Shown piece after piece: positions 29,900 through 50,508 of a DNA stretch of 64,000 nt. Source of the stretch: Tilletia caries (Eukaryota > Basidiomycota > Exobasidiomycetes > Tilletiales > Tilletiaceae); the NCBI GenBank assembly GCA_032718865.1, contig JALUTQ010000028.1, positions 620,001 through 684,000 of the forward strand, in the 5' to 3' direction. The position numbers were made by a program, and so were the translations under genes. Each line of letters begins with the position of its first letter. Position 1 is the first letter of the stretch. The notes under the pieces are model-generated. The model was not told where the DNA came from. It did not search any database and saw only the letters and a program-made list of their open reading frames with translations.

Positions 29900-32800
29900 T
29901 CAGCCAACGAAGGATGCAGTACTCTTTGTCATAGCAGGCGTATTCTTGCCCGTCTCCGACCATTTCGGCGTCCGGGCACCATACACAGCAGCCGCCGACC
30001 TCGGTGTCGGTCCCTCCAGCCCTTGCCCCGGCCCAGCAAATGACTTGACCCCACTCGGGGCCTGGAACGGAGTCTTCTTGCCGCCGTTGCCATGCCCTGC
30101 ACCCATTGGAGTGCTGGCACCGGCAAAGCCCATGGGAGGCGTTCGCCCTGTCTCTGGCGCCATTCCGCCGCAGGGAGTGCCACCTCCCATAGGTGGTCCC
30201 ATGATACCGTTTGACCCGGAGCTGTAGAGCGTCCTCATGTTGCTCTTGCCTTGCGCAGGGCCAGAGCTGGCCCGAGGCCCGCCGCCGATCGCCAGAGGCT
30301 TTGATTGGCCGGTATCAGGACTGTACAAGGAATAGATCTCAAGGTGAGCCAAGCAGCGCGTTGAGGCAGATAAATGCAGCAGCTCTGCCAAGTAACTCAC
30401 TCTTTCTCCTTCAGGAGTGCGAGAGGGAACGTCTCATTCCTGTTCGTTGTGTGCAGCTCAACGTATGCCTTGTCATCCGCCAACGTCTCCTTGATGATCC
30501 CGCGGTAGCTCTTGAAGGGTCCATTCACCACCACCACGTGTCTGCCCTTCAAGTAGTCCTTCGTTCGCCCACTCAGGGCAACGTGTGGCGTTGGGGTTGG
30601 ACCATTGCCACGCGAAGCCATCAGCTGCATGTTCCTTGCCGGGTTCATCTTGTCGAGACTGTGTTTGACCGATGTGCCGATGTCGTGTGGGGTCAAGGAG
30701 GTCAGGCGGCTTGGAGACGCATACCAGACACCGTTGTTCTCGGATATGTCTCGACTGAAGAGGAAGACTACACCTGTAGGGTGGGTCTGGACGACTTGGC
30801 CAGAGCGTGGAGACTGAAGGTAGAGAGGCAGACACGTGTCAGTTCCGTTAGTCTATAGGATGCATGATGGCGCGAAGTGTTTCTCTAACTCACATCGCCA
30901 ACAGTCTCCTTCATCGTGTCACCCTTACGGAATTCATGACCTTCGCGGTCAATGCAGACACCCAAGTTGTTCTTCGACTGCAATAGCGATCTCGGAGGGA
31001 CCAGGTGCGTATCTCCCTGCTCGTCGAGGACCCAAAACCCTTCGCCTTCAGAGTCGAAAATCACCGCCGGCCGATTCTTGTACATGACCAGATCGTGCAC
31101 CTGGAATTCCTCCATGTTGTTGTCAGCGTCAGCGATTGAGATCTGACTGAAGCCGGCCCGGGCGGCCTGGCGCAAGTCGTTGGAGAAGACGGTAACCTCC
31201 TTTTTCGTTAGATCGGAGAGGAAGATGGTCTTCTCGCCGGCGAATTGGACCACCATACCGGCCTCGTCGGTGTGGTCCCCGAAGCCGACTTTGACGTGGT
31301 CACCGGGTTTCCAAGTCTTGCGGACCTGGTCGAGTTGGACTTCGACCTTGGTGCCGTCCATTTCATCGTGCTCCATGCTGATGATGATGACCTGTCCGTT
31401 GACGGCATCGACGGTACCGCGGACGCCGCGCTGCTCGCCTTCGAAGACCTCGACATGGTCACCAGGCTGGACGACGACTTCGTTGGCCTTCCGCTTGAGC
31501 TGAGCCAAGTGGCGTAGATTGACCGATTCACTCACATTGCCCTCGTCATCGACTTCCGCGGTGATGCCTTGGAAGAGTTCGATCTCTTGTAGCGTAGGCT
31601 GCACATCCTCGACGATGAGGGAAGTTACTTTGACATCCTTCTCGCAGAAGCCGTTGCGGTAATCTTCGTTGTGGAACTTGTAGATATTCTTACCGCGCTT
31701 GGCCACTTCACCAGGATATACCCTCTGAACCTCGCCCATCACGAAGCGTTGTGGCCGTGGTCGTTTGTTGATAGCATTTTTGCCGCTGCCCAAGTTCCGC
31801 CGTCGCTTGACACCGCGCTTGTCCTCGATGAAATCTTGCTCGGATGGATTCATTTCGATGCGTGGCACGAACTTGATTCCGACCTCTTCTCCGTTCTGAC
31901 TGACATCGATGACTTGAGCCAGATCGCCTATGTGCTTCCCCCGCTTGAAGCGTACCCATCCTCCGACCTTGACTTCGTGTTCGATCTTGGTGAGCTTGAG
32001 CAAGTCTGCCATCTCCTCGATGGGAACGAGGAGGAGCTTGTCCGCGGTTCGAGCATAGACTCCGACGATGCCGGCGAGGGCCTCTATGACGGATTCGCGT
32101 CGACGAGACTCGACGTAAATCTTGCCTGGGATCGAGTCGCGGCAAAAGGCGGAGTGGATGGCCATGGGAGATGGAGCCTGACCCTTGATGCCTTGAAGGG
32201 ACGCGCAAGCCTTGCGCATGATGGTCATGACGATTTGGCGCTCTCTCCCAATCTTGACGGACACGGCCCAGAGACTTGGGTCTTCTAGATCGGGCATGAG
32301 GGCATGACGGGGGACGTCGTCGGAGGTGCCTATGTCCTTGCGACCTGCGATACGACGGTATTTCTTGCGGAAGTTGCGCGCCATTTCTTCGGCGTTGTGT
32401 GTCCATTCTTCGGCAGTCTGGTTCTCTTCCAGTCTCCGTATGACATCGAGATTCGCGTTGTCGGCTGCTGCTCGAATGCAGGAGGAAGCAGTGTTGTAGA
32501 TGTCCTCCTCGTCGATGAATCCGTCTGTGGTATCTTGGAGTTGTCAGTACGAGCTCGCGGTTCCACAGAGAAAGAGAGAGATCAGGCTGAGTTGCAGCTC
32601 ACCGTCAGGGCCAAAGCCTTCCTCCTCATCCTCAATCTCCTCGTCGGAATCGTCGACCTCGGCTTCGATATCGAGGTACTTGTTGCGGGCGCGCTTCTGC
32701 TTCTTGCGGCGTCCGCCAACGTCGTCGTCCTCGTCATCGATCTCGTCGTCGATCTCGTCCTCGTTGTCGGACAAGTCCGCAATGCGACGCTCAACCTCGT

Positions 32801-33017
32801 CGGGGTCGAGCTCTTCCTCGTCGTCATTGTCGTCGTCTTCGACGGCTCTGCGCGTCTTGGGTTGGGCGTCGATTGGGTCGACGAGGTGTGGGACTGGCAT
32901 GGACTTCTTCACGACCGAGTTATTTCCTTGCCAGGTGAGGGCGAGCATTGTGGACTTTTTGGCGGAGACCGGAGCCTCGAAGGGGGGGAGAGCGGAAGAG
33001 GAAACTGGGTAGGCCAT
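29900..33017 (-). CDS. SPT5: Transcription elongation factor Spt5
   Basis: Spt5 binds Spt4 and clamps RNA polymerase II. Exons 33017-32603, 32524-30894, 30813-30401 and 30320-29900 give 959 aa. A very acidic N-terminus (DDDNDDEEELDPDEVERR...) leads to the NGN domain (LWAVSVKIGRERQIVMTIMR ... GVYARTADKLLLVPIEEM). Several KOW domains follow (GGWVRFKRGKHIGDLAQVID; PGDHVEVFEGEQRGVRGTV; PGDHVKVGFGDHTDEAG; GRHVVVVNGPFKSYRGII). The C-terminal region has spaced PM-G-G-TP and TP repeats, the Spt5 CTR targeted by P-TEFb-type kinases. Reading frames are clean throughout. Confidence 0.95.
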
Positions 33018-33297
33018 GCTTTGCTGATTGTGGGTAGTGGAGCGCTGTAGCTAGGTGATGGGCAGGCAGCAGAAATGGGGGGAAGGAAGGGGGAAGGAAG
33101 GGGGAAAGAAGGGTGAGCGTGAGCAGTGAACCTTGCTTGCTCTTATACTTTTCCCTTCTCACCTCTTGTGGCCAATTGCAAGCATACAAGCAAGCATGAC
33201 CGAGGTCTCGAACACGTCAAACCTTCGATACATTCCTGAGACAAGCTTGTGAGAGAGTGTGATGAGTGAGAGTGAGAGAAGCGGGGGAATAAGAAGA

Positions 33298-33988
33298 TCA
33301 AGCCTGGCCCGTCTTGCGTGCGAGATCGGGAGCTGCCTTGACAGTGTCGATCGGCTGGTGTTCGTGCTTGACCTCCTCGACGGTAGGCCGGGACTCTGCG
33401 TTCGTATCAGTCTCGTTCTCCTTGGCTAACGCATTGAGCTGGGCGCGAACGTCTGCTGAGATCGGTTCGAGCTCGTCTGCTGATGTTTGAGCGTTCTGTG
33501 CGAGGACCTTGTGAATAAGCTGACTGTCGTCGAGATTGAAGTTGGGACGGAAGGAAGGACAGACAGTCGATCATCAGAGAGGGAGGGATCTGCTCACGCG
33601 AGCTTGCCCATGTAAGCCAGAAAGCGTGACGTCATCCTTTTGTCGATCGAAGTCCGTCTCTCATGGATCGTTGCGCAACGATGACCTCCTCCTCCTCCTC
33701 CTCTGCCGGCTCCTCGCCGCCCTCCTCAGTCTCAGTCTCGCCATCACCCTCCTGTTCCAAAAAAAAGGAAATCAATTGTTCAGTCTCCAGCGCTTTCAAG
33801 TAGGAGGGGGGAAACGCAGCACTGACCTCCTTGGGCTCGTCCTCGCCGTCGTCTGCGCGCGTGGTGGGGAGGAAAGAGGAGAAGAAGGAGAAGACGTTGG
33901 TCAGGACGGAGGATGAGTCCTGCGCTTGTGTCTGGTGCTGCTCAGCCATGGCGGGCGAGGTGGAGGTGGTGGCGGCGTCGGCGGTCAT
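33298..33988 (-). CDS. Small acidic protein, unrecognised
   Basis: Exon 1 starts at ATG 33988 or, with a better context (GCCATGGC), at 33949. It reads SSVLTNVFSFFSSFLPTTRA followed by an acidic Glu-rich run. A probable intron (33826 down to about 33752) is removed in the middle. The last exon (33519-33298) reads LIHKVLAQNAQTSADELEPI ... KTGQA and stop; its junction to the middle exon (an intron beginning with GTGAGC near 33597) is likely but the middle frame is unsettled. The start resembles the mitochondrial hinge protein Qcr6 in style, but its cysteine-rich C-terminus is missing, so I do not make that call. It is upstream of SPT5 on the same strand and divergent from the Fanzor gene. Confidence 0.55.
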
Positions 33989-34290
33989 GTTCTGTGTGTG
34001 CTGGGTGGGCGAGGTGATGGGGAGCGTGATTGGATGAATAATGCGATGGACTGGGGCGGCGGGAGAAGAGGTGAGCGCGGGCGAGTGAGTGAGTGAGTGA
34101 GTGAGTGGCTCGTGGCTTTCGGGTTGCTCGAGCTGATCCTTAGCTGGCTTGAGCTCATCCAGCGTCTGAGATCACCATCACCAGAGAGAGGAAAGGGGGG
34201 GATGAAACTCGCTTCCACGGGCTTCCATGGTATTCGATGTCTGTGCGTTGGTGACCAGTGTGCATTACGTCATGGCTGCAGCCACGAAGC

Positions 34291-34297
34291 TATATAA
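34291..34297 (+). promoter_or_regulatory. TATA box of the Fanzor gene
   Basis: TATATAA is followed by a C/T-rich start region (34310-34345) and, at 34383-34388, by the first of several CACGTG boxes. Transcription probably starts about 30 bp downstream, giving a short non-coding first exon ending at 34445. Confidence 0.55.
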
Positions 34298-34445
34298 GAA
34301 GCCCCATCCCACCACCCGCACCCGCTCTCCTTTTCCCCCCCTTCGGCTCTTCGCCCTGTTGTCCACTCATAGTTTGTTTTGCCACGTGACTGTCTGTCGA
34401 ACAAACTCTTCGGCGTTCACATCCGTCCCTCGGTGAAAGTTCAAG

Positions 34446-34909
34446 GTGAGTGTTTTTCATGTTTTCGGGTTTTGATTCGTTTTTCTGTCTTTTTGTGTAT
34501 TGTTTTCGGCCGTTTTTCGTTCTGTAGTTTTTGTTCGTGGCCATTCTATTTCCGTTTTTTTTTTTTATTTTTCTTTTTTTCTTCTTTTCTCCTTATCATT
34601 ATTAGATTAAAAGACCAACCACGTGACTAGCAGAGTCCAACCACGTGACCAGCACCGCTCCTTCTTTTTTTTCTTCTTTCTTTTCTGCTTATCATTATTA
34701 GATTAAAAGACCAATCACGTGACAAACAGAGTCCAAACACGTGACCAGCACCGATCGTTTTTTCATTCTTTTTCTTTTCTTTTCTTTTCTTTTCTTTTCA
34801 TTTTTTTTCTTTTTTCATTTTTCTTTTTTTCTTTTTTTTGGGTCATCATCGTAAGATCAAGAGACTGACCAGCACCGCTCCTATTTTTTCTCTTATTTGT
34901 TTTATACAG
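34446..34909 (+). other. Probable 5'-UTR intron of the Fanzor gene, with internal repeats
   Basis: CAAG|GTGAGT at 34445/34446 and a pyrimidine-rich TTTTATACAG ending at 34909 frame a 464-bp intron just before the ATG. It holds two copies (34593-34664 and 34689-34757, about 96 bp apart) of a unit reading TTATCATTATTAGATTAAAA ... CACGTGAC ... CACGTGACCAGCACCG, plus a shorter third copy (34844-34881) ending in GACCAGCACCGCTCC. T/C-rich stretches separate them. Four CACGTG E-boxes lie in the first two copies. The repeats may be regulatory or part of the mobile unit. Confidence 0.6.
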
Positions 34910-34915
34910 ATCACC

Positions 34916-36340
34916 ATGGCCGACCCTCCGCCAGCGCCCTGGATTGGGTCAGTAGCACCAGAATCGGTGCTGTGGCCTGGCGTGGAAGGCACACAACAGG
35001 CGGCGGAGTGGCATAATGCGCCCATCAATACTTGGTTTCTACCAAAATACGCCTTCCTGCCGCATCCAGTCGTGCCGGATGAAGATATCGGTGGGATGCT
35101 CACGGAGCTGAGCGCTACACTCCGGCAGCGCCTCGACGCTGTGCCTCCACCGCCGCCGCCTCGTCGGACCAGGCCTGGAGAGCACCAAAACAATTCGCGA
35201 TTGAAGACCTATCGCACCCGGCTTCGGCCGAATACACAACAAAAGGAGGCACTTCGAAAAACGGCTGGAATATTCAGGTGGACGTACAACCGGGCGGTGG
35301 CGTACCTCAAGGCTCACCCAAACGCCTCTTTAACCAACGTCCGGGAACATTCAGTCACAGAAGATGGCCTTCCCCTCATGAACCTGTCATGGGTGACTCC
35401 GGTGCCATACAGCATCAGGGAGCAGGCGTGCCTCGAGGCCCATACAGCGCTTCAGAATGGCTTGGAGGCCGTTCGGGACGGCGATATTCCGAACTTCGAG
35501 CTGAAGTTCCGGAAAAAGCGGGCGCTCTTCTCCTCCTTCCGAATTCGGAAACGTGACTGGGACGGAGGATGCCTCAAGATCTCAAATTTTGGTCTGGGTC
35601 CAGGTCAGCACCAGACCAGGATTCAGACGGGGATCGACGTTCCATCGCTGGAGCATGATGGGGCATGCATCAAGCAGGAGAACGGGTCATGGTTCCTGCT
35701 TTGGCAGAAGGACATGGGGGAACAGAAGATGCGGGTTCCGGCAGCACGTGGCCCAGAAATGTGCGCCATTGACCCCGGCGTTCGGACATTTGCCACGCTT
35801 TACGACCCTTTGCGGGGAATGACGGCAAAATTTGGCGATGGAGACCACAAGCGTCTTTTCCGCCTCGGTACGCACTTGGATCAGTTGATCTCGCGATCAA
35901 CCCAAGCTTCAGCAAAAAAGCGTTACCGTATGCGCCGCGCCGCAAATCGACTGCGTGCAAGAATCCGGCATCTCGTCGACGAGCTTCATTGGAAGCTGCG
36001 TGGCTACCTCAAGCAAAATTTCGACACTGTGCTGCTGCCAACATTCAACGCGCACCAGATGTCTCGGCGAGGTCAAAGGCGGATCGGGCGAAAGACAGTC
36101 AGAGCCATGATGTCGTGGGCGCACGGTCGCTTCAGAAGCCGATTAAATGAAGCTATGGAGGTCGTCGAGGTGGTGGAGGACTGGACATCCAAGGTCTGCT
36201 CAACGTGCGGCACGGTCAATTACAGACTTGGAGGCAGCGAAATCCACCGCTGCCCCGGATGTCTCACAGCCTCGGATCGAGACGTCAATGGCGCGAAAAA
36301 CATTTTCCTCCACTGGAAATATGATTTTCTCAACCAGTGA
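34916..36340 (+). CDS. Fanzor (eukaryotic TnpB-like RNA-guided nuclease)
   Basis: Fanzors are eukaryotic relatives of IS200/IS605 TnpB and Cas12; studied members are nuclear, RNA-guided DNA nucleases using a guide RNA transcribed from the 3' end of their locus. ATG 34916 (CACCATGG) gives 474 aa in one exon. A lineage-specific N-terminus (1-90) with a proline run precedes the TnpB-like helix-turn-helix/REC part (LKTYRTRLRPNTQQKEALRK, 97-116). RuvC-I is AIDPGVRTFATLYDP (D286). The usual RuvC-II site (VLLPTFNAHQMSRR) has no acidic residue; E421 in VVEDWTSKVCSTCG is a good replacement. The zinc ribbon is C428/C431...C446/C449, and RuvC-III is SDRDVNGAKNI (D456). A basic helical insert lies at 332-350. 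No frameshift or stop is seen. Confidence 0.9.
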   Translation: MADPPPAPWIGSVAPESVLWPGVEGTQQAAEWHNAPINTWFLPKYAFLPHPVVPDEDIGGMLTELSATLRQRLDAVPPPPPPRRTRPGEHQNNSRLKTYRTRLRPNTQQKEALRKTAGIFRWTYNRAVAYLKAHPNASLTNVREHSVTEDGLPLMNLSWVTPVPYSIREQACLEAHTALQNGLEAVRDGDIPNFELKFRKKRALFSSFRIRKRDWDGGCLKISNFGLGPGQHQTRIQTGIDVPSLEHDGACIKQENGSWFLLWQKDMGEQKMRVPAARGPEMCAIDPGVRTFATLYDPLRGMTAKFGDGDHKRLFRLGTHLDQLISRSTQASAKKRYRMRRAANRLRARIRHLVDELHWKLRGYLKQNFDTVLLPTFNAHQMSRRGQRRIGRKTVRAMMSWAHGRFRSRLNEAMEVVEVVEDWTSKVCSTCGTVNYRLGGSEIHRCPGCLTASDRDVNGAKNIFLHWKYDFLNQ

Positions 36341-36465
36341 CAGCGCGACAGCGACATATTCTCTTCTTCTTTTTCCTTTTCCTCCACATTTTCCTTTCAC
36401 TTTCTTTTCCTTGCGCTCTTCTCGCTTTCTTTTTCCCTTTTTGCCTTTTCTTTCCGGAAAAATGC

Positions 36466-36487
36466 CGCCGATCACACGTGATCGGCG
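36466..36487 (+). repeat. 10-bp perfect inverted repeat downstream of the Fanzor
   Basis: CGCCGATCAC-AC-GTGATCGGCG can form a 10-bp stem. It lies 126 bp after the stop codon, behind a C/T-rich tract, and contains CACGTG, the hexamer repeated in the Fanzor leader. In Fanzor and TnpB loci the guide RNA begins near the 3' end of the ORF and ends at the element boundary, so this hairpin is a candidate part of that RNA or of the element end. A second small palindrome, CTGTAC...GTACAG, follows at 36530-36544. Confidence 0.5.
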
Positions 36488-36667
36488 TTTGGGAGCTGCA
36501 CCCCTTTGGCTTCGGCCATTGCACTAGTCTGTACATAGTACAGGCTTGAAATGCAGCGTGTTGGCCGGATAAGCGCCAGTCAGAAACATTGCATTACACC
36601 GCGTTTGTAATGGGCAAGTTTGTAATGGGATCTCGATCTCTCTCTTCCTCGGTCTCTCCCTGTCAAC

Positions 36668-36910
36668 ATGTCCGAATTCGCGACGACCATCTCGAGCGCG
36701 CGCGACCGATTCGACTCGCACACAGCATCCGCACGCACAGCACTCAGCAGCCAGCAGTCGGCATCCGGAATCCGGAATCCGGAGAATTCACGGCGCAGCG
36801 CTCCTCTTTCCCCCGGCATCCAGCTGGCCAACCCGCAGGCGGATCAGACAAAAAACACTCCTAGCAATCGCAGCGTGCATCGCGCAGATCGGAGGGCGGA
36901 CAGTCTTTGA
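36668..36910 (+). CDS. Short hypothetical ORF upstream of ATG4
   Basis: An 80-codon frame starts at ATG 36668 in a reasonable context (TCAACATGTC) after a C/T-rich leader and reads MSEFATTISSARDRFDSHTA... It is Ser/Asn-rich, with no recognised domain. It could be the first exon of a gene, an upstream ORF of ATG4 or chance. Confidence 0.2.
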   Translation: MSEFATTISSARDRFDSHTASARTALSSQQSASGIRNPENSRRSAPLSPGIQLANPQADQTKNTPSNRSVHRADRRADSL

Positions 36911-37124
36911 AGACAGTCTGGAAGGAAGCAAATTGGACAGGTGAGCCAATCGCCGTGCGCGCTGCCTGCTTGTTGTTCTTCCCGCTTAACTTCGCTCTTT
37001 GTCTCCTCCTTCTCCCCCTCGCACGGCTTGTTGGCTGTCGCACTCCATCTTTCCGTCTCATTTCATGGCGGTCCTCCCAGTCGCTCTGCCACTGTGAACA
37101 CAGCACATCTCTGATCTCTCCGCC

Positions 37125-40100
37125 ATGTCGACAGGGACCGGCACTCCTACCGACACAGCCGGCTCGGCGCAAGGCTCACCTATCCTCGGAGAGATAACAC
37201 CAGGCCAGGGATCATACTACTCGTCGTCAAGCCGTGTATTCCACGATGACTCAGAAAGCAGTGGGATTCAGAGCTCCACAGACGAAGAGATGATGACTTC
37301 TCACTCCGGCGCACGGAGCGAGGACGCATCAGACACGATGGATCACACTCAGGACTTGACAGAGTCGGCGGACGGCATCGGTCACCTGGCTGAGCCTTCA
37401 GACGATACCATATACAACCATCCCAATGGGTCCCAAATCTCCACAGCCCCGCCCTCGTCTTGGGTTGCTCGTCTCACCGGCCGGAACCGATCTTCGAGTG
37501 TGGACTCGCCCTCACACACCCATTACTCTTTCCCAACCCGTCTGCGGACCACCACCGTCGTAGAAATCGATGCGTCTAGGCAGGCGCAAGCCGCTAATGA
37601 CAACAATCTGGCACATCTTCCCGGAGGTCCGGATATCGTCGTCTCCTCGAGTTCGTCGGTGAAATCTCCGCCCAGTCAGCCGCGGAACAGGATCTCCCTG
37701 TCCCGTCTCTCGCTCAGCCGCTCAGGGAAAAGTGCAGATCGGACCGAGCTGTATATACCGCGACCTTCTCGGCCTCCCACCAGCTCTGGCATCGCGCAGT
37801 CCAGCATGAGCAATCCGTCCGATGTTCACCATCTTCAGCGCACCCTTTCGGTCAATTCGATGCGCGTAGATCCCTCCGCGTCCTCTGAACATGTTGCAGG
37901 CGACTCATTGAATGCGGCACCCGACCGGCAAGGAGGCCGGCGCAAGCTTTTCAACCGCTCATCAAACACGAGCGCCTCGAGCATCCGGACACCGGAGATC
38001 GGGCGGCGAGGTTCGGACCAGAGTACGCAACCGGCTCCACCTCCCTCGTCCAGCGGGAAGGCTCGACAGATCTTGAGGTATCTGGACAGCGCGACGAGCG
38101 GACGAAATGCACAGAATCACAGGGAATACGACCTTGCCAGCATCAAGGGCAGCAATGTTTCATCCGACACGTTGGCCAGCGTCAACACCACAGATGCACG
38201 GCGGCGTTCCGGGGAGAGCACATTTACCACCTCGGTCGCAGGATCGATTCCGGCGTGGGCGAGACGCATCGGGAAGTCCAACAAATCTGGATCTGTATAT
38301 GGTGTTGGGTCTGGCTCTCCTGGCTCCGCGTTCGCGCACGCCTCCCCTAATATGAATTCGGGGAGACCAGGTAGAGGCGATCGAGAAGCGTCTCCGGCAT
38401 TCTCCGACGATAGCAACGCACCGGATGCGAGGTCGTCATACCCGTCTGGAATGTCCGCCTCGACACATTCAGGCTCGGAGAGCACCGGAGCGCACAGCAA
38501 CAGTGGCCGCGGACCGCTTCCGCCCACACCTCAGACAGCTCCACTCGCGCCAGCGCAGCAAGCTAACCGTCCGACTTCGTCAGGAGCTATGGTCAGCTCT
38601 TCGACTTCACGTTTCAGTTTACCGCTGCCCAGTGGCACCGGACTATTCCGGTTCTTCATCGATCCTGACGCCAGTTCTAGCAGCCTTGGCAAAGGCGCTT
38701 CTGTGGTGGACCAGCAGGGTATATGGCTGCTCGGTGTCTGGCACGGTCCGACTCAGCCCGATGGACAACAGGACGGCGACTCGTCGCCAGCGACCTCCGT
38801 GCCCCCGAATGCTGCCCCCATACCAGTGCCCTCAAAGTCAGCAGGTCCGAGCTCGTTCAATCCCAGCGAGCGTCGACAGAGCCCGGCTGCATCTATTCAG
38901 CGAGGCTCCGTGTCTTCCCACTCTCGAAGCAGTGAAACGCCAGTGTTCCCTCGGAATGTCAGCAGTGATGCTCTGAACAGTCCAAGCACATCTGCACCGA
39001 GCTCCTTCTCTGCCCAAAGTTCCCCTGAGAAGGTACACACAAGGCTGCCTCCGACAAGTGTCAGCTCGGGGTCGATCTCGACTCGGTCTAGCCTGGACAA
39101 TGCGAATGGCCCGTATGTCCCTTCGCATCAGAGTCGCTCCAGTGCAGGTAAGGGCAAGAGTGTAGAACGAACCATTCCTGAAGCCCGGAGGAATCGTCCG
39201 CCTGCGTTGGATCGAGGTTCTTCACAAGAGGGGAGCGCGTCTATTGGTGGAACGGACTCGGGGACTCTGTCGGAGCGGTCCATCAACTCGGAAGAGCGAG
39301 CATATACCCCCTCGTCTTCAGATGTCGCGAACACACCACTACAGAGCCCGCCGACACCACAGACGACATCTCGCTTCGAAAAGCAAGCTGCGATTGCCTC
39401 TGCCCAAGCGGCGATCTCCGGCACGCGTCCGGCTGCATCATATACGGGAGCAGAACCTGCAAGACAGACCTCGCTTGAAGAGGCGCTGCGATGGCAGGCC
39501 AATTTCCAGGCCGATTTCAGCTCGCGAGTTTGGTGCACGTACCGGAATCACTTCACGCCGATTGCTCGGGATGGGACCATCTCCGCCCAAGCTGAGGCAG
39601 GGCCACTGCAGCCTGGTGCTGGCAGTGGGACCGGTGATGCGCTCTACCCACTGGCTACGCCTCAGACGGCTGGCGCGGGTGCCTGGCCAGGAGGCCCGGG
39701 TCAATCTGTGCGGCAGTGGATTGGTCGCAGGCTAGGCGAGGGTGGATCATCACATGACCTCTTGAGCTCCTCGCCCAGTCAGAGCAGTCAGATGGGCACG
39801 GTTTCCACCAGTCCGAGTATGAGCACGATGCCCTCCTCTAGCACAACTGCGACAATGGGAGGTCTGATGTCGCCTGGGAGTGCGTTTGCGAGAAGTCCGA
39901 ATGCAAACGCGGGGAGCGCGTATGTTCCAGGCGGCGGGGGTGGATTGCTGTCGGCCACGGGTAGCGTTGCTGGTGGACTCGGTGAGAAGATGGGGATACC
40001 AAATCTGTGGGGCCGAGCTACTGCGGCTGCTCAGGCTGTCGGTCTGACGGGGAGGTCAGGCCTGACCACCGACGCTGGTTGGGGCTGCATGCTACGGACA

Positions 40101-42439
40101 GGACAGTCGCTGTTGGCGAATGCGCTGATGGACATCCACTTGGGTCGGGAATGGCGGCGGAAGGAGAATCCGGTCTCTCAACGCATCACTGCGTTGCAGC
40201 AGGCTTTGCAAACTTCACCATCGGTGGCCAACGCTTTCGCCATGTCTCTACCCCTTCATATGCCTCCAGAGGTGACGTTGCTGGATACCAGTGATCCGGC
40301 GTACGAGATGAAGCGGCAAGCCTTGGAGGAGCACTGGCAGGTCGCCAAGACCGAGTACGCCAAGTACGTCCGGCTGATCAGCTGGTTCTTGGATGACCCG
40401 TGCTTTGCCTGTCCGTTCTCGGTGCATCGCATGGCACGAGAAGGAAAGCGACTAGGGAAGGATGTGGGGGAGTGGTTCGGTCCTTCTACAGCGGCTGGTG
40501 CGATCAAGCAGCTCGTCAACGAGTTCCCTGAGGCGGGGCTTGGCGTTTGTTTGGCTGTCGATCAGGTTGTCTACCTGGCGGATGTCAAAGAGGCGGCTTT
40601 GGACAGTAGCAGGGGCGGAGTGAGCAGGGCTGGCCAGCTCGCGGGGCGATGGGATCGGCCTGTGCTGATTCTGATCAACATCAGACTCGGCATTGACTGC
40701 GTCCATCCGCGTTACTATGATTCTGTCAAGGTGAGTCTCTCGAATCAAACGCGCTAACACGGTCGCGTATTTACCTTCGACCTTCCTTTTTTTTCGCGCT
40801 CCAGAACATTTTCACTTTCCCTCAAAGCGTCGGAATTTCTGGTGGCCGTCCGAGTTCTTCTTACTATTTCATGGGGTGCCAGGAAAACACCCTCTTCTAC
40901 TTAGACCCGCACAACGTTCGTCCGGCAGTCCCGTACCAAGCATCGCCCCGATCTCCTAACCGACACGGCTCGACCCCAGATCTTACTGGCCAAGCGGGCC
41001 AGGAGGGATCTGTCAGCTTGACCGAGCAAGACGTCTGGCAGGACGACTGGTGGTGTCAGGCCTACTCCGAAGCACAGCTGAACACGTTCCACTGCGAGAA
41101 GGTGCGAAAGATGCCGATGAAAAGTCTGGATCCCAGCATGTTGCTCGGGTTCCTCGTCAAAACTGCCGAACAACTCGAAGACTTTTGTGCACGCGTCAAG
41201 AAGCTTCCTGAACCCATCTTCAGCGTGGCGGATCATGCACCGCGCTGGGATGCTGTGGATGATGATGACGAGCTGGACGCCGCGATGGAGAGCTTCTCCG
41301 AATCTTCCGTCGACGTGGACGAGGACAAGGTGGACAGCAACGAGTCAGGGGAGAACAGCGATGACATCGACTTCGACTCTGGTGCTGTCTCGGTTCCCGA
41401 GCCGAAGACGATCGTCGGAAGCGAGGCATTCGCCCCTGGTCCGTCGCGCTCGACAAAGCAACAGACCCGATCCCCCCTCGTGGCCCAGAAGGTAGCTCCG
41501 ATCCAGTTCCCCGTGATGCGTTCGGATGACTTCGATGGCGGTGACGTTGACGCGGAGGATGAGCAGACCACAGTTGGACATGGCACGTACGACGCCAATC
41601 GGCGGCGAACCTCGTCTACGCGCAAGTCGAGCTCTCGACGTATCTCCGGTATCGGCCGACGGAGGATCCAGAGACAGTCTGGGGACGCGTTCCACATGTC
41701 TACGGCATCTTCGAACACTACCTTCGCTCCGACGGGGCGGTATGGATCCGGCATAAGCAGTCGTCAGACGTCCGGCGCTTCTACAGCTCGCGAGTTCTCC
41801 TTCTCGATGCCGGTCTCTCGGCCGGGAGATGGCGGGCCCAACACCAGTACGGGATCGCACTCCGAGATTTCCCCTTCCGCTTCGACGGAGAGAGGCGATC
41901 ACACTTATCATCGGAAAGTGTCGTCCCAGGAGCGTGCGCAGCAGACAGAGTCTGGGAACGACAGCGTTGTAATGGTCGAGGCCCCGGAGTCGTCCGGGAA
42001 GTCAAGGTTGACGAGGATCTCAGCTGAGGAAGCGAGGGAAGCCGAGGAGACGAGCTATGTGGTGACGCAGGCTGGTTCCCTTTCTTCCGACGACGGCGAT
42101 TCGACATGGTCGAATTTGAGTTTGGCGGACCAGCGACACGGTTCTCAACAAGATCGCCTCACGACTCCGAGCAGCAGTGCCGAGGAAGCGGAGGATGGGG
42201 TCGAGGAGGATGAGATCCTGATTCCTTCTGGGGTGCACTCTTCTCATACCTCGACTCGGTCCGCGCAGGAGGAGGAGCCGGTGGGCGAGCAGCGGTACGC
42301 GTATGTGTCCTCGAGCTCGCCGGAGGAAAGGGAAGGGGCGGAGGTTCCGATCCGTCGGCAGGAGTCTGCTGGCGTCGCCCGAAACTTGTCCGGCACGTCA
42401 CTGGGTGGTGGTCCTCGACAACGGCCCAATGTTCAGTAG
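37125..42439 (+). CDS. ATG4: Atg4 cysteine protease, very long form
   Basis: Atg4 trims Atg8 to expose its C-terminal glycine and later removes it from lipid. Exons 37125-40730 and 40805-42439 (GTGAGT...CCAG) give 1746 aa. The protease core occupies roughly residues 760-1300. The catalytic cysteine is Cys988 in DAGWGCMLRTGQSLLANAL, and the Asp/His pair is in FYLDPHNVRPAV in exon 2, after GISGGRPSSSYYFMGCQ. Two further core pieces (ARVWCTYRNHF-type segment near 39520; RIRWFLDDP-like ISWFLDDPCFACPFSVH) match the family. About 750 N-terminal and 400 C-terminal residues are Ser/Pro-rich and disordered, so the protein is three to four times the usual 400-500 aa. The acidic tail (EEDEILIPSG) could hold an Atg8-interacting motif (inference). 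Confidence 0.92.
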
Positions 42440-43839: not shown

Positions 43840-45149
43840 CTAGTATTGGCCAGCCAGGTCCGAAGGGAAGCGGGACGGCGGGATCCGACCCTGCAGGTAC
43901 GGGTTGTATTGGTTCGCTGTCGGCTGCATGTTTGGTGCGCTCGGAGGGAAGCTGATGCCGTTGTCGAGGATGTATGGCGTGAACTGCGGGTACATGGTCA
44001 CAGTCGGGGGAATGTCCCGATGGGGAAGTGCCGGCCTGGTAATCCGAGCTCTGGGCAGGCGAAGGGGGACCATTGGAGATGTTGAAGACGACGGCGCCGG
44101 TGGAACGGTTTCGATGTGTGTTCCCGAGCCGTCAATGTCCGATGTGGCGCTGATGCGCTGCTCGACGTGGTTGGGAACGGAAGGAGGACTATCGACAACG
44201 CCTGCAGCCGAAGGAACCGGGCGCGAGAAGTAGCGTTTGACGTGCTTGGCGGCATAGGTCCTGCTCATGCGGGTGCCGTCGACCTCCCGTAATGCATAAG
44301 ATCCTCCTGGAAGTTGTCGCTCCACGCGATAAGGTCCGAGCCAACGATCTTGAGCCCGCTGATCGTGCGTCGGGTTGCTGACGATGACCAAGGTTCCCGC
44401 AGGTAGCGGCTCGCGCAGGAGATGAGCGTTGCGGGAGTCTGCATATGTTCGTCCTTGTAGGCGCGAGTGCTCCAATCGAAGCTTGGCTAGATGAAGATCG
44501 TCCATCCGTCGCTTCAACTGTCGTGTTCTTGCCGCGATCAGTTCTGCCGGTGTGGTGATTGTGTCCCAGTCAAAAAGGACGAAGGTGGCCAGCTCGACGT
44601 CCATGGGGATCACCGGCTCCATGCCGTACACGAGTTCGAAAGGGGAAGCTGAGGTCGTACGCCGAGTTGTGATCCGGTCCGCCCAGAGGACGTAGGGAAG
44701 GTAGCTCGCAGTGTTACTGCGGTCATCGTAGGACGCCTTCAGAATGCCTTCAACAAGTGGCCCGTGGCCTCTTTCGACCTCCGTGTTTCCTTCGGGATTG
44801 TATGGCGTAGAGTATGCGTGATTGAATCCCAAGTGCTTGATCAGCCAAGTCGTCTCGCCGGCATTCTCGGTGCCGTTGTCCGTCAGAATGGTTCTGATGA
44901 TACCTCCGTATCGTGACAGAACGTCTTCTTCGAGGAAAGCCCGAACTGATGAAGCGCTCTTGTCCCCCAGAAGCCTGGCCTCTGGCCAGCCAGTGAATGC
45001 GTCACGGGCTACCACTAGGTATCGTTTGGGACCCACGCCTTGGCCGAGGTCGACGATGTCCATGTTAAAGCGTTCGAACAGGTTCGGTATAGGCGCATGA
45101 CGAGCGGGCTCCCTCTGCGAGCGGTGTTCGCGTCGTTGGCAGGGGTCAC
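43840..45149 (-). pseudogene. Retrotransposon integrase, C-terminal portion
   Basis: This part begins just after the inserted array with the second half of the integrase zinc-binding motif (DPCQRREH) and continues through the core: D in NMDIVDLG, D in LTDNGTEN and E in NTEVERGH (about 34 residues apart). A basic C-terminal region (GPYRVERQLPGGSYALREVD) and a Pro/Ser-rich tail end at 43840. No chromodomain was seen. The frame is the same as that of pol on the far side of the array: the inserted 2740 bp plus the 5-bp duplication is a multiple of three, so the break is due only to the insertion. Confidence 0.9.
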
Positions 45150-47889
45150 TGTTATGAACATTCTACCACTATACTAAAAGGTGAGACCAGTCTCGACCCA
45201 AGTGTCATGGATGATGCATATATCCAACACTCCCTCTCATCATCATGACCCTTTGGTCTGAGACGCGAGACCCCATAGGACTAGGGGTGAGACTCTTTCG
45301 GCCCGGAGTACCCGGCGCACGTGCTGTGGAAATCCCGACAAGCACCCGACAAGAAAATGGTCGGAAAAGAAGTCTGGAGATACCGGGAATCGAACTCACG
45401 ACAGAGTCGATCAGACTCTTAATCTGTTGTGAACATTCTACCACTATACTAAAAGGTGAGACCAGTCTCGACCCAAGTGTCATGGATGATGCATATATCC
45501 AACAGACTAAAAGGTGAGACCAGTCTCGACCCAAGTGTCATGGATGATGCATATATCCAACACTCCCTCTCATCATCATGACCCTTTGGTCTGAGACGCG
45601 AGACCCCATAGGACTAGGGGTGAGACTCTTTCGGCCCGGAGTACCCGGCGCACGTGCTGTGGAAATCCCGACAAGCACCCGACAAGAAAATGGTCGGAAA
45701 AGAAGTCTGGAGATACCGGGAATCGAACTCACGACAGAGTCGATCAGACTCTTAATCTGTTGTGAACATTCTACCACTATACTAAAAGGTGAGACCAGTC
45801 TCGACCCAAGTGTCATGGATGATGCATATATCCAACACTCCCTCTCATCATCATGACCCTTTGGTCTGAGACGCGAGACCCCATAGGACTAGGGGTGAGA
45901 CTCTTTCGGCCCGGAGTACCCGGCGCACGTGCTGTGGAAATCCCGACAAGCACCCGACAAGAAAAATGGTCGGAAAAGAAGTCTGGAGATACCGGGAATC
46001 GAACTCACGACAGAGTCGATCAGACTCTTAATCTGTTGTGAACATTCTACCACTATACTAAAAGGTGAGACCAGTCTCGACCCAAGTGTCATGGATGATG
46101 CATATATCCAACACTCCCTCTCATCATCATGACCCTTTGGTCTGAGACGCGAGACCCCATAGGACTAGGGGTGAGACTCTTTCGGCCCGGAGTACCCGGA
46201 GCACGTGCTGTGGAAAAACCCGACAAGCATCCGACAAGAAAATGGTCGGAAAAGAAGTCTGGAGATACCGGGAATCGAACTCACGTCGTGAGTTCGATCA
46301 GACTCTTAATCTGTTGTGAACATTCTACCACTATACTAAAAGGTGAGACCAGTCTCGACCCAAGTGTCATGGATGATGCATATATCCAACAGACTAAAAG
46401 GTGAGACCAGTCTCGACCCAAGTGTCATGGATGATGCATATATCCAACACTCCCTCTCATCATCATGACCCTTTGGTCTGAGACGCGAGACCCCATAGGA
46501 CTAGGGGTGAGACTCTTTCGGCCCGGAGTACCCGGCGCACGTGCTGTGGAAATCCCGACAAGCACCCGACAAGAAAATGGTCGGAAAAGAAGTCTGGAGA
46601 TACCGGGAATCGAACTCACGACAGAGTCGATCAGACTCTTAATCTGTTGTGAACATTCTACCACTATACTAAAAGGTGAGACCAGTCTCGACCCAAGTGT
46701 CATGGATGATGCATATATCCAACAGACTAAAAGGTGAGACCAGTCTCGACCCAAGTGTCATGGATGATGCATATATCCAACACTCCCTCTCATCATCATG
46801 ACCCTTTGGTCTGAGACGCGAGACCCCATAGGACTAGGGGTGAGACTCTTTCGGCCCGGAGTACCCGGCGCACGTGCTGTGGAAATCCCGACAAGCACCC
46901 GACAAGAAAATGGTCGGAAAAGAAGTCTGGAGATACCGGGAATCGAACTCACGACAGAGTCGATCAGACTCTTAATCTGTTGTGAACATTCTACCACTAT
47001 ACTAAAAGGTGAGACCAGTCTCGACCCAAGTGTCATGGATGATGCATATATCCAACACTCCCTCTCATCATCATGACCCTTTGGTCTGAGACGCGAGACC
47101 CCATAGGACTAGGGGTGAGACTCTTTCGGCCCGGAGTACCCGGAGCACGTGCTGTGGAAAAACCCGACAAGCATCCGACAAGAAAATGGTCGGAAAAGAA
47201 GTCTGGAGATACCGGGAATCGAACTCACGTCGTGAGTTCGATCAGACTCTTAATCTGTTGTGAACATTCTACCACTATACTAAAAGGTGAGACCAGTCTC
47301 GACCCAAGTGTCATGGATGATGCATATATCCAACACTCCCTCTCATCATCATGACCCTTTGGTCTGAGACGCGAGACCCCATAGGACTAGGGGTGAGACT
47401 CTTTCGGCCCGGAGTACCCGGCGCACGTGCTGTGGAAATCCCGACAAGCACCCGACAAGAAAATGGTCGGAAAAGAAGTCTGGAGATACCGGGAATCGAA
47501 CTCACGACAGAGTCGATCAGACTCTTAATCTGTTGTGAACATTCTACCACTATACTAAAAGGTGAGACCAGTCTCGACCCAAGTGTCATGGATGATGCAT
47601 ATATCCAACACTCCCTCTCATCATCATGACCCTTTGGTCTGAGACGCGAGACCCCATAGGACTAGGGGTGAGACTCTTTCGGCCCGGAGTACCCGGAGCA
47701 CGTGCTGTGGAAAAACCCGACAAGCATCCGACAAGAAAATGGTCGGAAAAAGAAGTCTGGAGATACCGGGAATCGAACTCACGTCGTGAGTTCGATCAGA
47801 CTCTTAATCTGTTGTGAACATTCTACCACTATACTAAAAGGTGAGACCAGTCTCGACCCAAGTGTCATGGATGATGCATATATCCAACA
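45150..47889 (-). mobile_element. Tandem array of a miniature LTR-like (TRIM-type) element with Pol III boxes
   Basis: The 2740-bp block has a 5-bp duplication GTCAC (45145-45149 and 47890-47894). It consists of ten copies of an 80-bp repeat (TGTTRTGAAC...TATATCCAACA; first 45150-45229, last 47810-47889) alternating with nine internal units of about 195 bp. Repeats start TG and end CA. Read on the minus strand, each internal unit ends in a purine run (GAGAGGGAG) against the next repeat, like a polypurine tract. Each repeat carries a perfect A box (TAGTATAGTGG) and each internal unit a near-perfect B box (AGTTCGATTCC) 44 nt on, so every junction resembles a tRNA gene, ending in ...TATCTCCA. 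No coding capacity. A tandem TRIM is the best fit; a tandem SINE-type repeat is the alternative. Confidence 0.8.
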
Positions 47890-50505
47890 GTCACAGCTGG
47901 AAACGTGCCGTATACAATCCACGGCTAGTCGTTCCCACCAAACGCGCTTGGATAAAAGAGCAATCATTGCATCTCGACCGCGGTGGCCATGGAGTTCATG
48001 TGCCTCGTGCATCAGTCGGTCTTTCAGACTTTGACTGTCGATGACGAGCTGGGGCGCATCGTTCTTCTTTCCCCGTCGGTACAGACGGCCCTCCCGAACG
48101 AAGAACTTCCCAATCATCTGCTTGATCCAATTGCGGCGAGACGGCGGTAGTGGCTTGAGGATCTTGTGGGACAGACCGGAGTGCAGGTACTCTGCCAGAT
48201 GAAGCCATTTGTCCGTGTAGAGGTCTGTCCGCAACGGGATGGGATCGTCAGGGTCGTCACTACTGAGACTCGACGCGGAGTCCGTAGTAGTCACGCCATG
48301 GTACGTAGAGGAGTCGTCGGTATCCTCAGATGCGGTGCCCGAAGGGTTTCCGGTGCCCGAAGGCTCGATATCGATCCCCGCAGGGTTGGCGACGCCTGCC
48401 AATTGCGCTCCAGTTCCTCTTGCACGTCGGTGCCAGTCCGCAACGTCCGATTCCGATGGGCCGAGGGTCGAAGGGGTAGAGTGAATCAGAACATTCGACC
48501 GTGAGTTGATAGACGCATGACCTCCCGGTGTCGCGTGCTGAATCTGCTTCTCCCCTGCCATGGTCTTATCGTCGTCCGAGGAGTCGAAGTTTCGAGGGCG
48601 AACGTCGAGACCAATCTTGTCCGGTGGCCATTCTCCTGCCGGGGACACTGTGTCGAAATCGGTCCTGGACAATCCGTCAGGAAGAGTGTGCCGATGGGCT
48701 GGAACGTGGCGGATCTCGTGGTCGAACAGCTTCAGGTACTGTACCCATCTCGTCATAGCAGCGTTCGGGATGTCGGGGGAGTTGATCATCTGACGAAGGC
48801 TGGCGGCATCAACTTCGAGGATGAAAAAGACCCCGTAAAGACTGTGCCGAAGGTGTTTGACGGCCTTGAAGACTCCGCAGAGCTCGAGTTGAGGTTGGCT
48901 GTAACGGCTTTCGACATCGGAGAACCCGACGGAACCGTATTGATTCAACTTCCGGAGTTGTCCTTCTTGCGTGTCGCCCTGGAACAAGGCCCAACCCGCG
49001 GCCAGCTGGCTGGAATCGACCGCTAGCACTAATGGCTCCGAAGAGGTGTAGTCGATGGCCACAAGGATGGGTTGTGTCTTTGCCGCCTCCTTCAAGTTCT
49101 CCATGGCTGCGCTCGCCCCGTCGTTCCACCGAAATCGTCCTGTCAGAAGCTTGCGGAGAGGGGCGTCGATTGTCGCGAATCCACGGATGAACGGTCGCAG
49201 GTAATTGGCGAGACCAAGGAAGCCGCGGAGAGAGCTGATGTTTGGCGGCGGACAGGGCCAATTCTCCAGCTTGGCTACCTTCTCGGGGTCCGAGTGCTTC
49301 CCGTTCCGATCGATGACCACACCTGTTATCGATACTCGGGGTGTGATGGCGACAAACTTCTCTCCTGAAAGTGTGAGACCGGCGTGTTCGTATCGTCGTA
49401 GGCATCGAGAGTACGTCCGTAAGTACTCCAAGAACCAGAGCCGAAGGTTGGTTCCTTCTAGGGTCTTGTTCCCTTGGTCGCTTCGTGGACCTTTGAAAAC
49501 GATGTCATCCACGAAGACTTGCACGTTCTCGGAAAGCTCGTCGAGGTAGATGTGAGTGCTGACGCGTTGTGCGTATGCAGGGGAGTTAGTTGCTCCCTGT
49601 GGTAGACGAGTGCTTTGGTACATTCCATGGATCGTTCGGATCGCCGTCATGGGCCTGGAGTCGGGATGGAGAACGATTTGATCGAAGAAGGAGTGCCCAT
49701 CTCCACTCCCATAGCACACTCGTCCGGACAGGGCCTCGCAGAAGTCGTTGAGATTGGGAGGAACGTTCGCATCGCGGATGGTCACGGCGTTCAGCGCGGA
49801 CATGTCTACGACCTTCCGGATCGCCCCATTCTTCTTGGCGACAAAGAAGTGGGGGGTAACGTACGGTCCGTCGGCGGGCTCGATGTCTCCGGCTTCGATC
49901 TGTTCCGCGTAGATGTCTCGGATCTCTTTGATGCGAGACTTGGGAAAGGGAATCGTCTTGCCGATCCAGGGTTCGTGGGAAACGGTGCGGATTTGGTAAG
50001 GGTCGGCATATGTCGCCTTCAGGAGGCCTTTTTCGCTCCTGTCGAAGGAAAAGGCCATCTCATGGTGAAGCGTCACCTTGATTAACGCTTCCTTTTCGTC
50101 GTCGTGAAGGAAACCGGGCGGCCCGAAGTTCATCTTGCCTAGGCGCTCCGTGGTGATTCGATGGGTTGAGGGACGGGGTTGTTTCCAGATAGGAACTGGC
50201 CAGTCCAATGGGGTATATTCGATAGGCGGATCAAAAGGAGGTCGTCGAAGGGGCTGGGAGTGCGAGCCGTCGACCTCTACCGCTAAGGGTCGAATCTTCT
50301 TGTCGACGGTCTTGTGTTTTGTGTTTGAGTGTGAATCCCACTTACTTGTATTCTGTTCCTGCTTCGCAATCTTCACTTCCTGGAGCATGTTCGAAAAGAG
50401 AAAGCCGTAAGATTGGAGAGGGACAGTGGTTAACATACAAGTCTGGACAGTTTCGGTGCAGCTGTCCGAGTCTTGGAAATGGTGGGACGGCATTTCCGCG
50501 ACATC
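47890..50505 (-). pseudogene. Retrotransposon pol: reverse transcriptase, RNase H, start of integrase
   Basis: The frame continues directly from gag after one UAG. RT motifs: GAIRKVVDMSALN, CYGSGDGHSFFDQI, LPQGATNSPAYAQ and the catalytic FVDDIVF. RNase H follows (LVLAVDSSQLAAGWALFQG; ELCGVFKAV; LEVDAASLRQM). A linker of about 150 acidic/Ser-rich residues precedes integrase. The zinc-binding motif H..H (HELHGHRG) and first cysteine (HVSSCD) are cut by the inserted array, which adds a few foreign codons and a stop at 47779. The polymerase part itself is intact. Confidence 0.92.
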
Positions 50506-50508
50506 CTA
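50445..50508 (-). promoter_or_regulatory. Possible UAG readthrough site between protease and pol
   Basis: Gag-protease ends with UAG at 50508-50506 and pol follows in the same frame. Eight nucleotides after UAG starts a potential stem GGAAAT...ATTTCC (50497-50492 with 50480-50475), followed by GGACAG...CTGTCC (50467-50462 with 50450-50445), each 6 bp with an 11-nt loop. An 8-nt spacer before RNA structure is the layout known for gammaretroviral Gag-Pol readthrough. The stop could instead be a simple nonsense mutation. Confidence 0.45.

What the first reader, a model, noticed from the sequence alone, without database searches (positions are those of the whole stretch)
34916..36340. Intact Fanzor with a relocated RuvC-II glutamate
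The ORF has D286 (RuvC-I), a CxxC...CxxC ribbon (C428-C449) and D456 (RuvC-III), but the normal RuvC-II position reads VLLPTFN with no acidic residue. E421, just before the TSKVCSTCG ribbon start, can supply it. Fanzors are known to have such a rearranged catalytic site, so this looks like a functional eukaryotic RNA-guided nuclease rather than a decayed TnpB. It has no frameshift, unlike most transposon genes in this window, which suggests it is maintained or recently arrived.
Basis: partly seen in the sequence, partly recalled or inferred. Interest (0 to 1): 0.88.

Follow-up and report, generated by a model that had tools for sequence, protein, structure and literature searches.

The report
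Fanzor nuclease on promoter-capturing mobile element
A wheat-bunt-type fungus carries an intact copy of Fanzor, the eukaryotic relative of CRISPR nucleases; its odd active site is normal for Fanzors, but its copies share one exact end and run a variable distance into captured host-gene DNA at the other, which hints at an unusual way of moving.

Summary

The element is less ordinary. I group about 20 related loci in this Tilletia-like genome; five keep a full open frame, dN/dS 0.29-0.60 between them. Copies share a nearly invariant, foldable right end (36454-36558) followed by different DNA in 17 of 17 distinct flanks. Left ends vary: 15 of 16 copies examined carry different lengths of the 5' region of host gene QCR6, whose hinge-coding gene elsewhere lacks Fanzor at that point. 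Later groups carry other host-gene DNA. No serine recombinase or Y1 transposase was found; Helitrons are common. I read this as right-end-anchored ("one-ended") mobility of a Fanzor2, described before for Fanzor1 Helitrons. The mobilising enzyme and DNA cleavage are untested.

The parts
33682..34123 (-). Captured fragment (442 bp) of host gene QCR6: promoter side, start codon and 5' exon, divergent from Fanzor. Left part of the mobile unit in this copy.
   Evidence: 92% identical over 450 columns to the gene at C22 (L046), where homology stops at both ends of this stretch; the C22 gene has the UCR_hinge domain; the window fragment does not. T. laevis protein P0122 has the same fragment and run-off end.
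34124..34915 (+). Fanzor upstream region; TATA-like stretch 34292-34298 and a possible 5'-UTR intron 34446-34909 (GTGAGT...ATACAG), both read by eye from the sequence, not from a tool.
   Evidence: Junction 34123|34124 is shared by 14 of 16 copies examined and absent from the C22 gene; sequence.
34916..36340 (+). Fanzor2 ORF, 474 aa.
35771..35773 (+). Codon of D286 (RuvC-I, DPG).
   Evidence: D in 61 of 61 aligned sequences.
36176..36178 (+). Codon of E421 (relocated RuvC-II glutamate).
   Evidence: E in 60 of 60 with a residue.
36197..36262 (+). C4 zinc ribbon, C428-C449.
36281..36283 (+). Codon of D456 (RuvC-III).
36454..36558 (+). Conserved right end, presumed omega-RNA scaffold; closing stem GCTGCA/TGCAGC ends at the boundary. 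Element ends at 36557 (C) or 36558 (G).
   Evidence: Nearly invariant in 17 copies, MFE -40.5 kcal/mol; 2 of 300 shuffles as stable; flanks beyond it differ in 17 of 17 distinct copies. No transcript seen; no Rfam match.
36559..36578 (+). Predicted start of the guide segment (flanking DNA); inferred from TnpB/Fanzor biology, length arbitrary.
   Evidence: Inference; sequence.

Best explanation
An intact Fanzor2 with the active site normal for Fanzors is the only protein I found in a mobile unit (33682-36558 here) that is fixed at one end only. Shown by sequence: the protein family; a multi-copy family; a sharp, conserved, foldable right end with different DNA beyond it in every distinct copy; left ends that stop at different points in host DNA; a Fanzor-QCR6 joint shared by nearly all copies examined, so one founding event; capture of further host-gene DNA in later groups. 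Inferred: the right end encodes the guide-RNA scaffold; copies are made from the right end leftward until the process stops and are joined elsewhere without a target duplication, as in one-ended rolling-circle transposition by an enzyme supplied in trans (Helitrons are candidates); the nuclease cuts guide-matched DNA and so favours retention of the element, as is thought for TnpB. I put Fanzor2 identity near certain, right-end-anchored copying about 0.75, and the rolling-circle-in-trans step about 0.35.
For: Protein. Selection: dN/dS 0.29-0.60 in 10 of 10 pairs of the five open copies and 0.19-0.78 in 18 of 18 comparisons with the window copy; catalytic and ribbon residues kept in every piece that covers them (D286 18 of 18, the others 12 of 12) among the 19 pieces used. 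Right end: 17 of 17 distinct flanks differ; 0.77% divergence against 5.4% at four-fold sites in the same 12 copies. Left end: seven clearly different limits within QCR6 in 15 of 16 copies, shared joint in 14 of 16; QCR6 gene without Fanzor at C22. Second round: c03 carries ~1.2 kb of the c09 flank with a proteasome gene, right flanks differ; other groups. A second Fanzor2 family shows a sharp right end and differing left limits in 3 copies. No serine recombinase or Y1 transposase; 60 Helitron_like_N matches. One-ended transposition is described for Fanzor1 Helitron2 elements (PMC3627910, passages).
Against: The ORF tree does not group copies by left flank as a simple copying chain predicts (F1 copies c10 and c19 fall apart from c04/c16; F2 copies are scattered), so recombination between copies or weak signal is needed. 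Four copies (c07, c08, c11, c17) have other upstream DNA from about the ORF start. No Helitron sharing the 29-base terminus (up to 3 mismatches) was found, the one Helitron 3' end located differs, and the end is not CTRR. For four copies (c04, c06, c13, c18 groups) the QCR6 or flank match runs into a GTGAGTGA repeat, and for c06, c13, c18 it is only 33-36 bp. Several copies are interrupted by other insertions, so pairing of left and right ends up to 9 kb apart (c05, c10, cC5b) is presumed. No RNA, transposition or cleavage data.
Confidence: 0.65

Rival explanations
1. RNA-mediated copying: an unspliced transcript starting at variable points upstream is reverse-transcribed from its 3' end by a LINE-type enzyme, giving a fixed right end and variable left ends.
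For: Fixed 3' end, variable 5' end. In c11 homology starts just at the predicted exon boundary.
Against: The possible 5'-UTR intron is kept in most copies; no poly(A) tail; no clear target duplication in the 11 and 13 copies checked; the captured genes lie antisense.
Confidence: 0.2
2. DNA-repair capture: fragments of the locus were pasted into double-strand breaks by end joining or copied in by break repair, perhaps at breaks made by Fanzor itself.
For: Left junctions show little or no microhomology, no target duplication, variable length.
Against: Does not explain a right end exact to a base in 17 unrelated sites; if guides placed the copies, right flanks should resemble each other or the DNA next to the QCR6 joint at C22, and those printed do not.
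Confidence: 0.1
3. Ordinary IS607-type Fanzor2 element moved by a serine recombinase that has since been lost or is supplied from elsewhere.
For: Of the 14 best viral-contig relatives tested, 13 have a Resolvase-family gene on the contig; right end fixed, no target duplication.
Against: No Resolvase match in the 38.1 Mb genome (the control rang in 10 of 14 genomes; intron-split genes could be missed). Precise site-specific recombination does not give variable left ends with captured genes.
Confidence: 0.1
4. A dead remnant of a TnpB without function.
For: Most related loci are broken or interrupted; no activity data.
Against: Five open frames, dN/dS below 1, catalytic residues kept.
Confidence: 0.06

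Closest known systems
Fanzor2 proteins, e.g. mimivirus L79 (PDB 9b0l)
   Same: DPG, relocated glutamate, C4 ribbon, fold.
   Different: About 18% identical over the aligned part. In print Fanzor2 genes sit in IS607-like elements or, in algae and molluscs, in cut-and-paste transposons (passages of PMC3627910 and PMC10711439).
Fanzor1 elements CRe-1, -2, -3 of Chlamydomonas (Helitron2, one-ended transposition)
   Same: 3' end intact, 5' end variable, occasional extra DNA captured upstream (passages of PMC3627910).
   Different: Fanzor1, share ends with resident Helitrons and often have 7-19 bp target duplications; here Fanzor2, no shared Helitron end found, no clear duplication, long host-gene captures.
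Fanzor2* (Fanzor2 in eukaryotic cut-and-paste transposons; PMC10711439)
   Same: Fanzor2 outside a detectable IS607 element.
   Different: Those have inverted repeats and target duplications (passage); copies here have no common left end to carry an inverted repeat.
Helitron gene capture
   Same: Movement of host promoter and exon pieces; possible chimeric genes (recalled; listing).
   Different: Right end is AATGCAGC(G), not CTRR; no Rep/helicase in the unit.

Membership tests
Fanzor2 protein | DPG in RuvC-I and glutamate six residues before the C4 ribbon | tested here: met
   pattern.
Fanzor2 protein | TNB zinc ribbon, RD of RuvC-III and N-terminal HTH_OrfB | tested here: met
Fanzor2 protein | Closest to Fanzor2 rather than Fanzor1 in sequence and fold | tested here: met
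   9b0l Fanzor2 best (E 1.2e-21), SpuFz1 chains E 1.4e-4 or weaker; no tree with Fanzor1 was built.
Fanzor2 protein | Guide RNA encoded at the right end | tested here: inconclusive
   Conserved, foldable right end; no transcript data.
Fanzor2 protein | RNA-guided DNA cleavage | not testable with these tools
   Needs a biochemical assay.
IS607 transposon | Serine recombinase TnpA in the element or genome | tested here: not met
   0 Resolvase matches in the genome; intron-split genes could be missed.
Helitron / Helitron2 element | Helitron enzymes present in the genome | tested here: met
   60 Helitron_like_N matches.
Helitron / Helitron2 element | Terminus shared with a resident Helitron | tested here: inconclusive
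   29-base terminus occurs in 16 places, all assigned to this family; only one Helitron 3' end was located and it differs.
Helitron (canonical) | CTRR 3' end | tested here: not met
   Right end reads AATGCAGC(G).
Cut-and-paste transposon | Target-site duplication | tested here: not met
   No clear duplication in 11 and 13 copies; c06 and c13 have doubtful 5-6 base matches.

The most novel reading that the evidence does not exclude
The Fanzor2 ORF and its RNA-encoding right end are by themselves enough, with host repair, to make this unit move: the guide-RNA end is the only fixed terminus, no dedicated transposase serves it, and each round can carry promoters and first exons of host genes to new places and make chimeric genes (the annotated T. 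controversa protein P0124, a QCR6-like start joined to a methyltransferase, is a possible example).
Probability: 0.12. Interest if true: 0.88.

Novelty: new variant of a known kind. Interest (0 to 1): 0.55.

Why it matters
If right, a Fanzor2 outside IS607 has spread in a fungus as one-ended units that carry promoters and 5' exons of housekeeping genes. That would tie eukaryotic RNA-guided nucleases to gene capture, known mainly from Helitrons, and it offers a natural multi-copy system of right ends, guides and empty sites in which the role of Fanzor in the survival of its element can be tested by comparing isolates.

Tried and rejected
Rfam on 33000-38000: three matches, all below their gathering scores, none credible. 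Target-duplication search: in 11 copies the longest repeat of the right flank on the left was 9 bases for the window copy, about 4.5 kb from its left junction; at 13 junctions 5-6 base matches for c03, c06, c13 and c15 only, those of c06 and c13 nearest the junction. Guide-directed placement of copies: not supported, right flanks unrelated by eye. Naming the left-hand ORF by Pfam failed; the homologue search and the C22 gene settled it as QCR6. My interim note that the window held the founder at the native QCR6 locus was wrong: the hinge-coding gene is at C22 and the window has a captured fragment. A tree of 18 copies did not reproduce the left-flank groups. The Helitron-end test covered one family. 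Paper searches: Fanzor with Tilletia 0 papers; Fanzor 79 papers since 2023, 40 listed; at least two of Fanzor, Helitron, IS607: 13; at least two of TnpB, one-ended transposition, gene capture, transduction of flanking, rolling-circle: 85, 15 listed. I saw no report of this pattern for a Fanzor2, on those open-access listings and the passages read only.

Limits: left flanks were fetched for 16 copies and the C22 gene; other loci were seen through their first-look stretches only. Pfam on left-flank genes covered c09, c18, c15, c19, family-B L051 and C22; other left flanks (c02, c05, c06, c12, c13, c16 and the rest) were not scanned. dN/dS used 19 pieces (18 copies, c19 in two pieces); c09, c21 and others were left out. 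c14's right end stops 17 bases short and was not counted among the 17 flanks; c21 duplicates c17 and was counted once. Copy counts are lower bounds by the tool's own warning.

Full report
What was claimed and what is there. The window ORF 34916-36340 (+) is open for 474 codons. D286, E421, C428/C431/C446/C449 and D456 are as stated. Pfam gives Cas12f1-like_TNB (1.2e-11) and HTH_OrfB_IS605 (1.7e-10) over their cut-offs and OrfB_IS605 (2.4e-4) below its cut-off. The best solved relative by sequence is mimivirus Fanzor2, 9b0l (E 5.1e-17 from the single sequence; 6.2e-61 from a 61-row profile).

The organism and the family. The window is G000:C23:620001-684000 of an unnamed 38.1 Mb assembly. The closest proteins are from Tilletia laevis (90% over 88%), T. 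caries (94% over 63%) and T. indica (63%). The genome gives 53 matching pieces, which I group into about 20 loci of one close family (82-98% aa identity) and a few of more distant families. Five loci, the window copy included, show a full-length frame without a stop. Between those five dN/dS is 0.29-0.60 in 10 pairs; against the window copy 18 comparisons lie between 0.19 and 0.78. D286 is kept in 18 of 18, and E421, the four cysteines and D456 in 12 of 12, of the pieces that cover them. The lineage looks constrained.

The right end. Copies end in ...CTGTAYATAGTACAGGCTTGAAATGCAGC (small variants in single copies), followed by G in 14 of 17 and A in 3 of 17, then by DNA that differs in all 17 distinct copies. 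The 213-base right end matches 20 places and the 29-base terminus 16. One of these, C5:897797, has no Fanzor ORF match near it, but family left-end DNA 9 kb away. The last ~108 alignment columns differ by 0.77% between 12 copies whose four-fold degenerate sites differ by 5.4%. The last 105 bases fold at -40.5 kcal/mol (2 of 300 shuffles reach it), and a closing stem GCTGCA/TGCAGC ends at the boundary. This is what an omega-RNA scaffold would look like, but no transcript was seen and Rfam gives no credible match.

The left end. It has no fixed position. Fifteen of 16 copies examined carry a piece of host gene QCR6, with nine left limits by coordinate, of which seven are clearly separate; in c06, c13 and c18 the piece is only 33-36 bp, in c14 45 bp. 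The QCR6 gene with its hinge domain is at contig C22 and has no Fanzor at that joint. Fourteen of the 16 copies contain the joint CTTTCGGG|T(C/T)GCTCGAGC (one base short in c04), which C22 lacks. So Fanzor joined the QCR6 promoter once, and copies then ran different distances into it. The window copy is the longest: 442 bp of QCR6, 33682-34123. The same fragment is annotated as a protein in T. laevis (P0122).

A second round is visible. c09 lies beside a proteasome subunit gene (Pfam PF00227); c03 carries ~1.2 kb of that flank, with the gene apparently frame-shifted, and then other DNA, while right flanks of c03 and c09 differ. Other groups share extra left flank but have different right flanks where seen: c04/c10/c16/c19 (ATG5 match in the c19 flank), c06/c13/c14/c18 (proteasome match in the c18 flank; c14's right end is broken and c18's was not paired with certainty) and c15/cC5b (ribulose-phosphate epimerase match in the c15 flank). 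Left junctions show little or no microhomology and no clear target duplication.

A second Fanzor2 family repeats the pattern. Three copies 99.2-99.7% alike (L051, L052, L028; each with a broken frame) end at ...TTTCTAATGTAGCCG with three different right flanks. L028 starts 261 bases further in than the point where L051 and L052 part. DNA to the left of L051 includes an ATP synthase g subunit gene. Its right end is less convincingly folded (9 of 300 shuffles).

What moves it. Of the 80 viral-contig relatives fetched I tested the records of the first 14: 13 have a Resolvase-family gene on the contig; in the two whose coordinates I compared it adjoins the TnpB/Fanzor gene, as in IS607. This fungal genome shows none and no Y1 transposase, but 60 Helitron_like_N matches. 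Bao and Jurka (PMC3627910, passages seen) described one-ended, 3'-fixed transposition for Fanzor1 elements on Helitron2 in Chlamydomonas, and Fanzor2 only in IS607-type elements. What I see is the same kind of behaviour in a Fanzor2. Against a simple Helitron ride: no shared terminus found, the one Helitron 3' end I located differs, no CTRR, no target duplications. Against a simple copying chain: the ORF tree does not group copies by left flank, and c07/c08/c11/c17 have other upstream DNA from about the ORF start.

Verdict. As a protein it is ordinary: a new member of Fanzor2 whose active-site layout is fully explained. As an element it is a new variant: a Fanzor2 unit anchored at its presumed guide-RNA end and open at the other, carrying promoter and first-exon pieces of host genes. 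The mobilising enzyme and nuclease activity remain to be tested.

Noticed in passing
window 47779-54393 (-) and 43840-45063 (-): Gypsy-like retroelement with long open frames: 904 aa (RT, RNase H, integrase zinc binding), 1295 aa (aspartyl protease) and a 407-aa integrase core.
   Followed up: no
window 5103-5414 and 7223-9031 (+): Helitron_like_N match and a 602-aa PIF1-like helicase frame: a Helitron remnant.
   Followed up: no
window 33632-33988 (-): Fragment ORF of QCR6 that T. laevis annotation lists as a protein (P0122); a pseudo-gene made by capture.
   Followed up: yes
window 37125-42439 (+) and 30885-32384 (-): Host genes beside the element: ATG4-like peptidase C54 in two frames and SPT5.
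   Followed up: no
protein P0124 (T. controversa): Annotated protein whose first ~35 residues are QCR6-like and whose rest is a methyltransferase; possible chimeric gene from a captured QCR6 start, or an annotation error.
   Followed up: partly
G000:C34:442116, 675845, 1328658, 1447686, 1622646, 1702127; C4:750840; C9:363514: Eight weak TNB-domain matches, several with identical scores: perhaps another multi-copy TnpB/Fanzor-related family.
   Followed up: no
L007, L008, L011, L017 (upstream of the ORF): Subclade of copies with unrelated upstream DNA from about the ATCACCATGG start; in L011 the break falls at the predicted exon boundary.
   Followed up: partly
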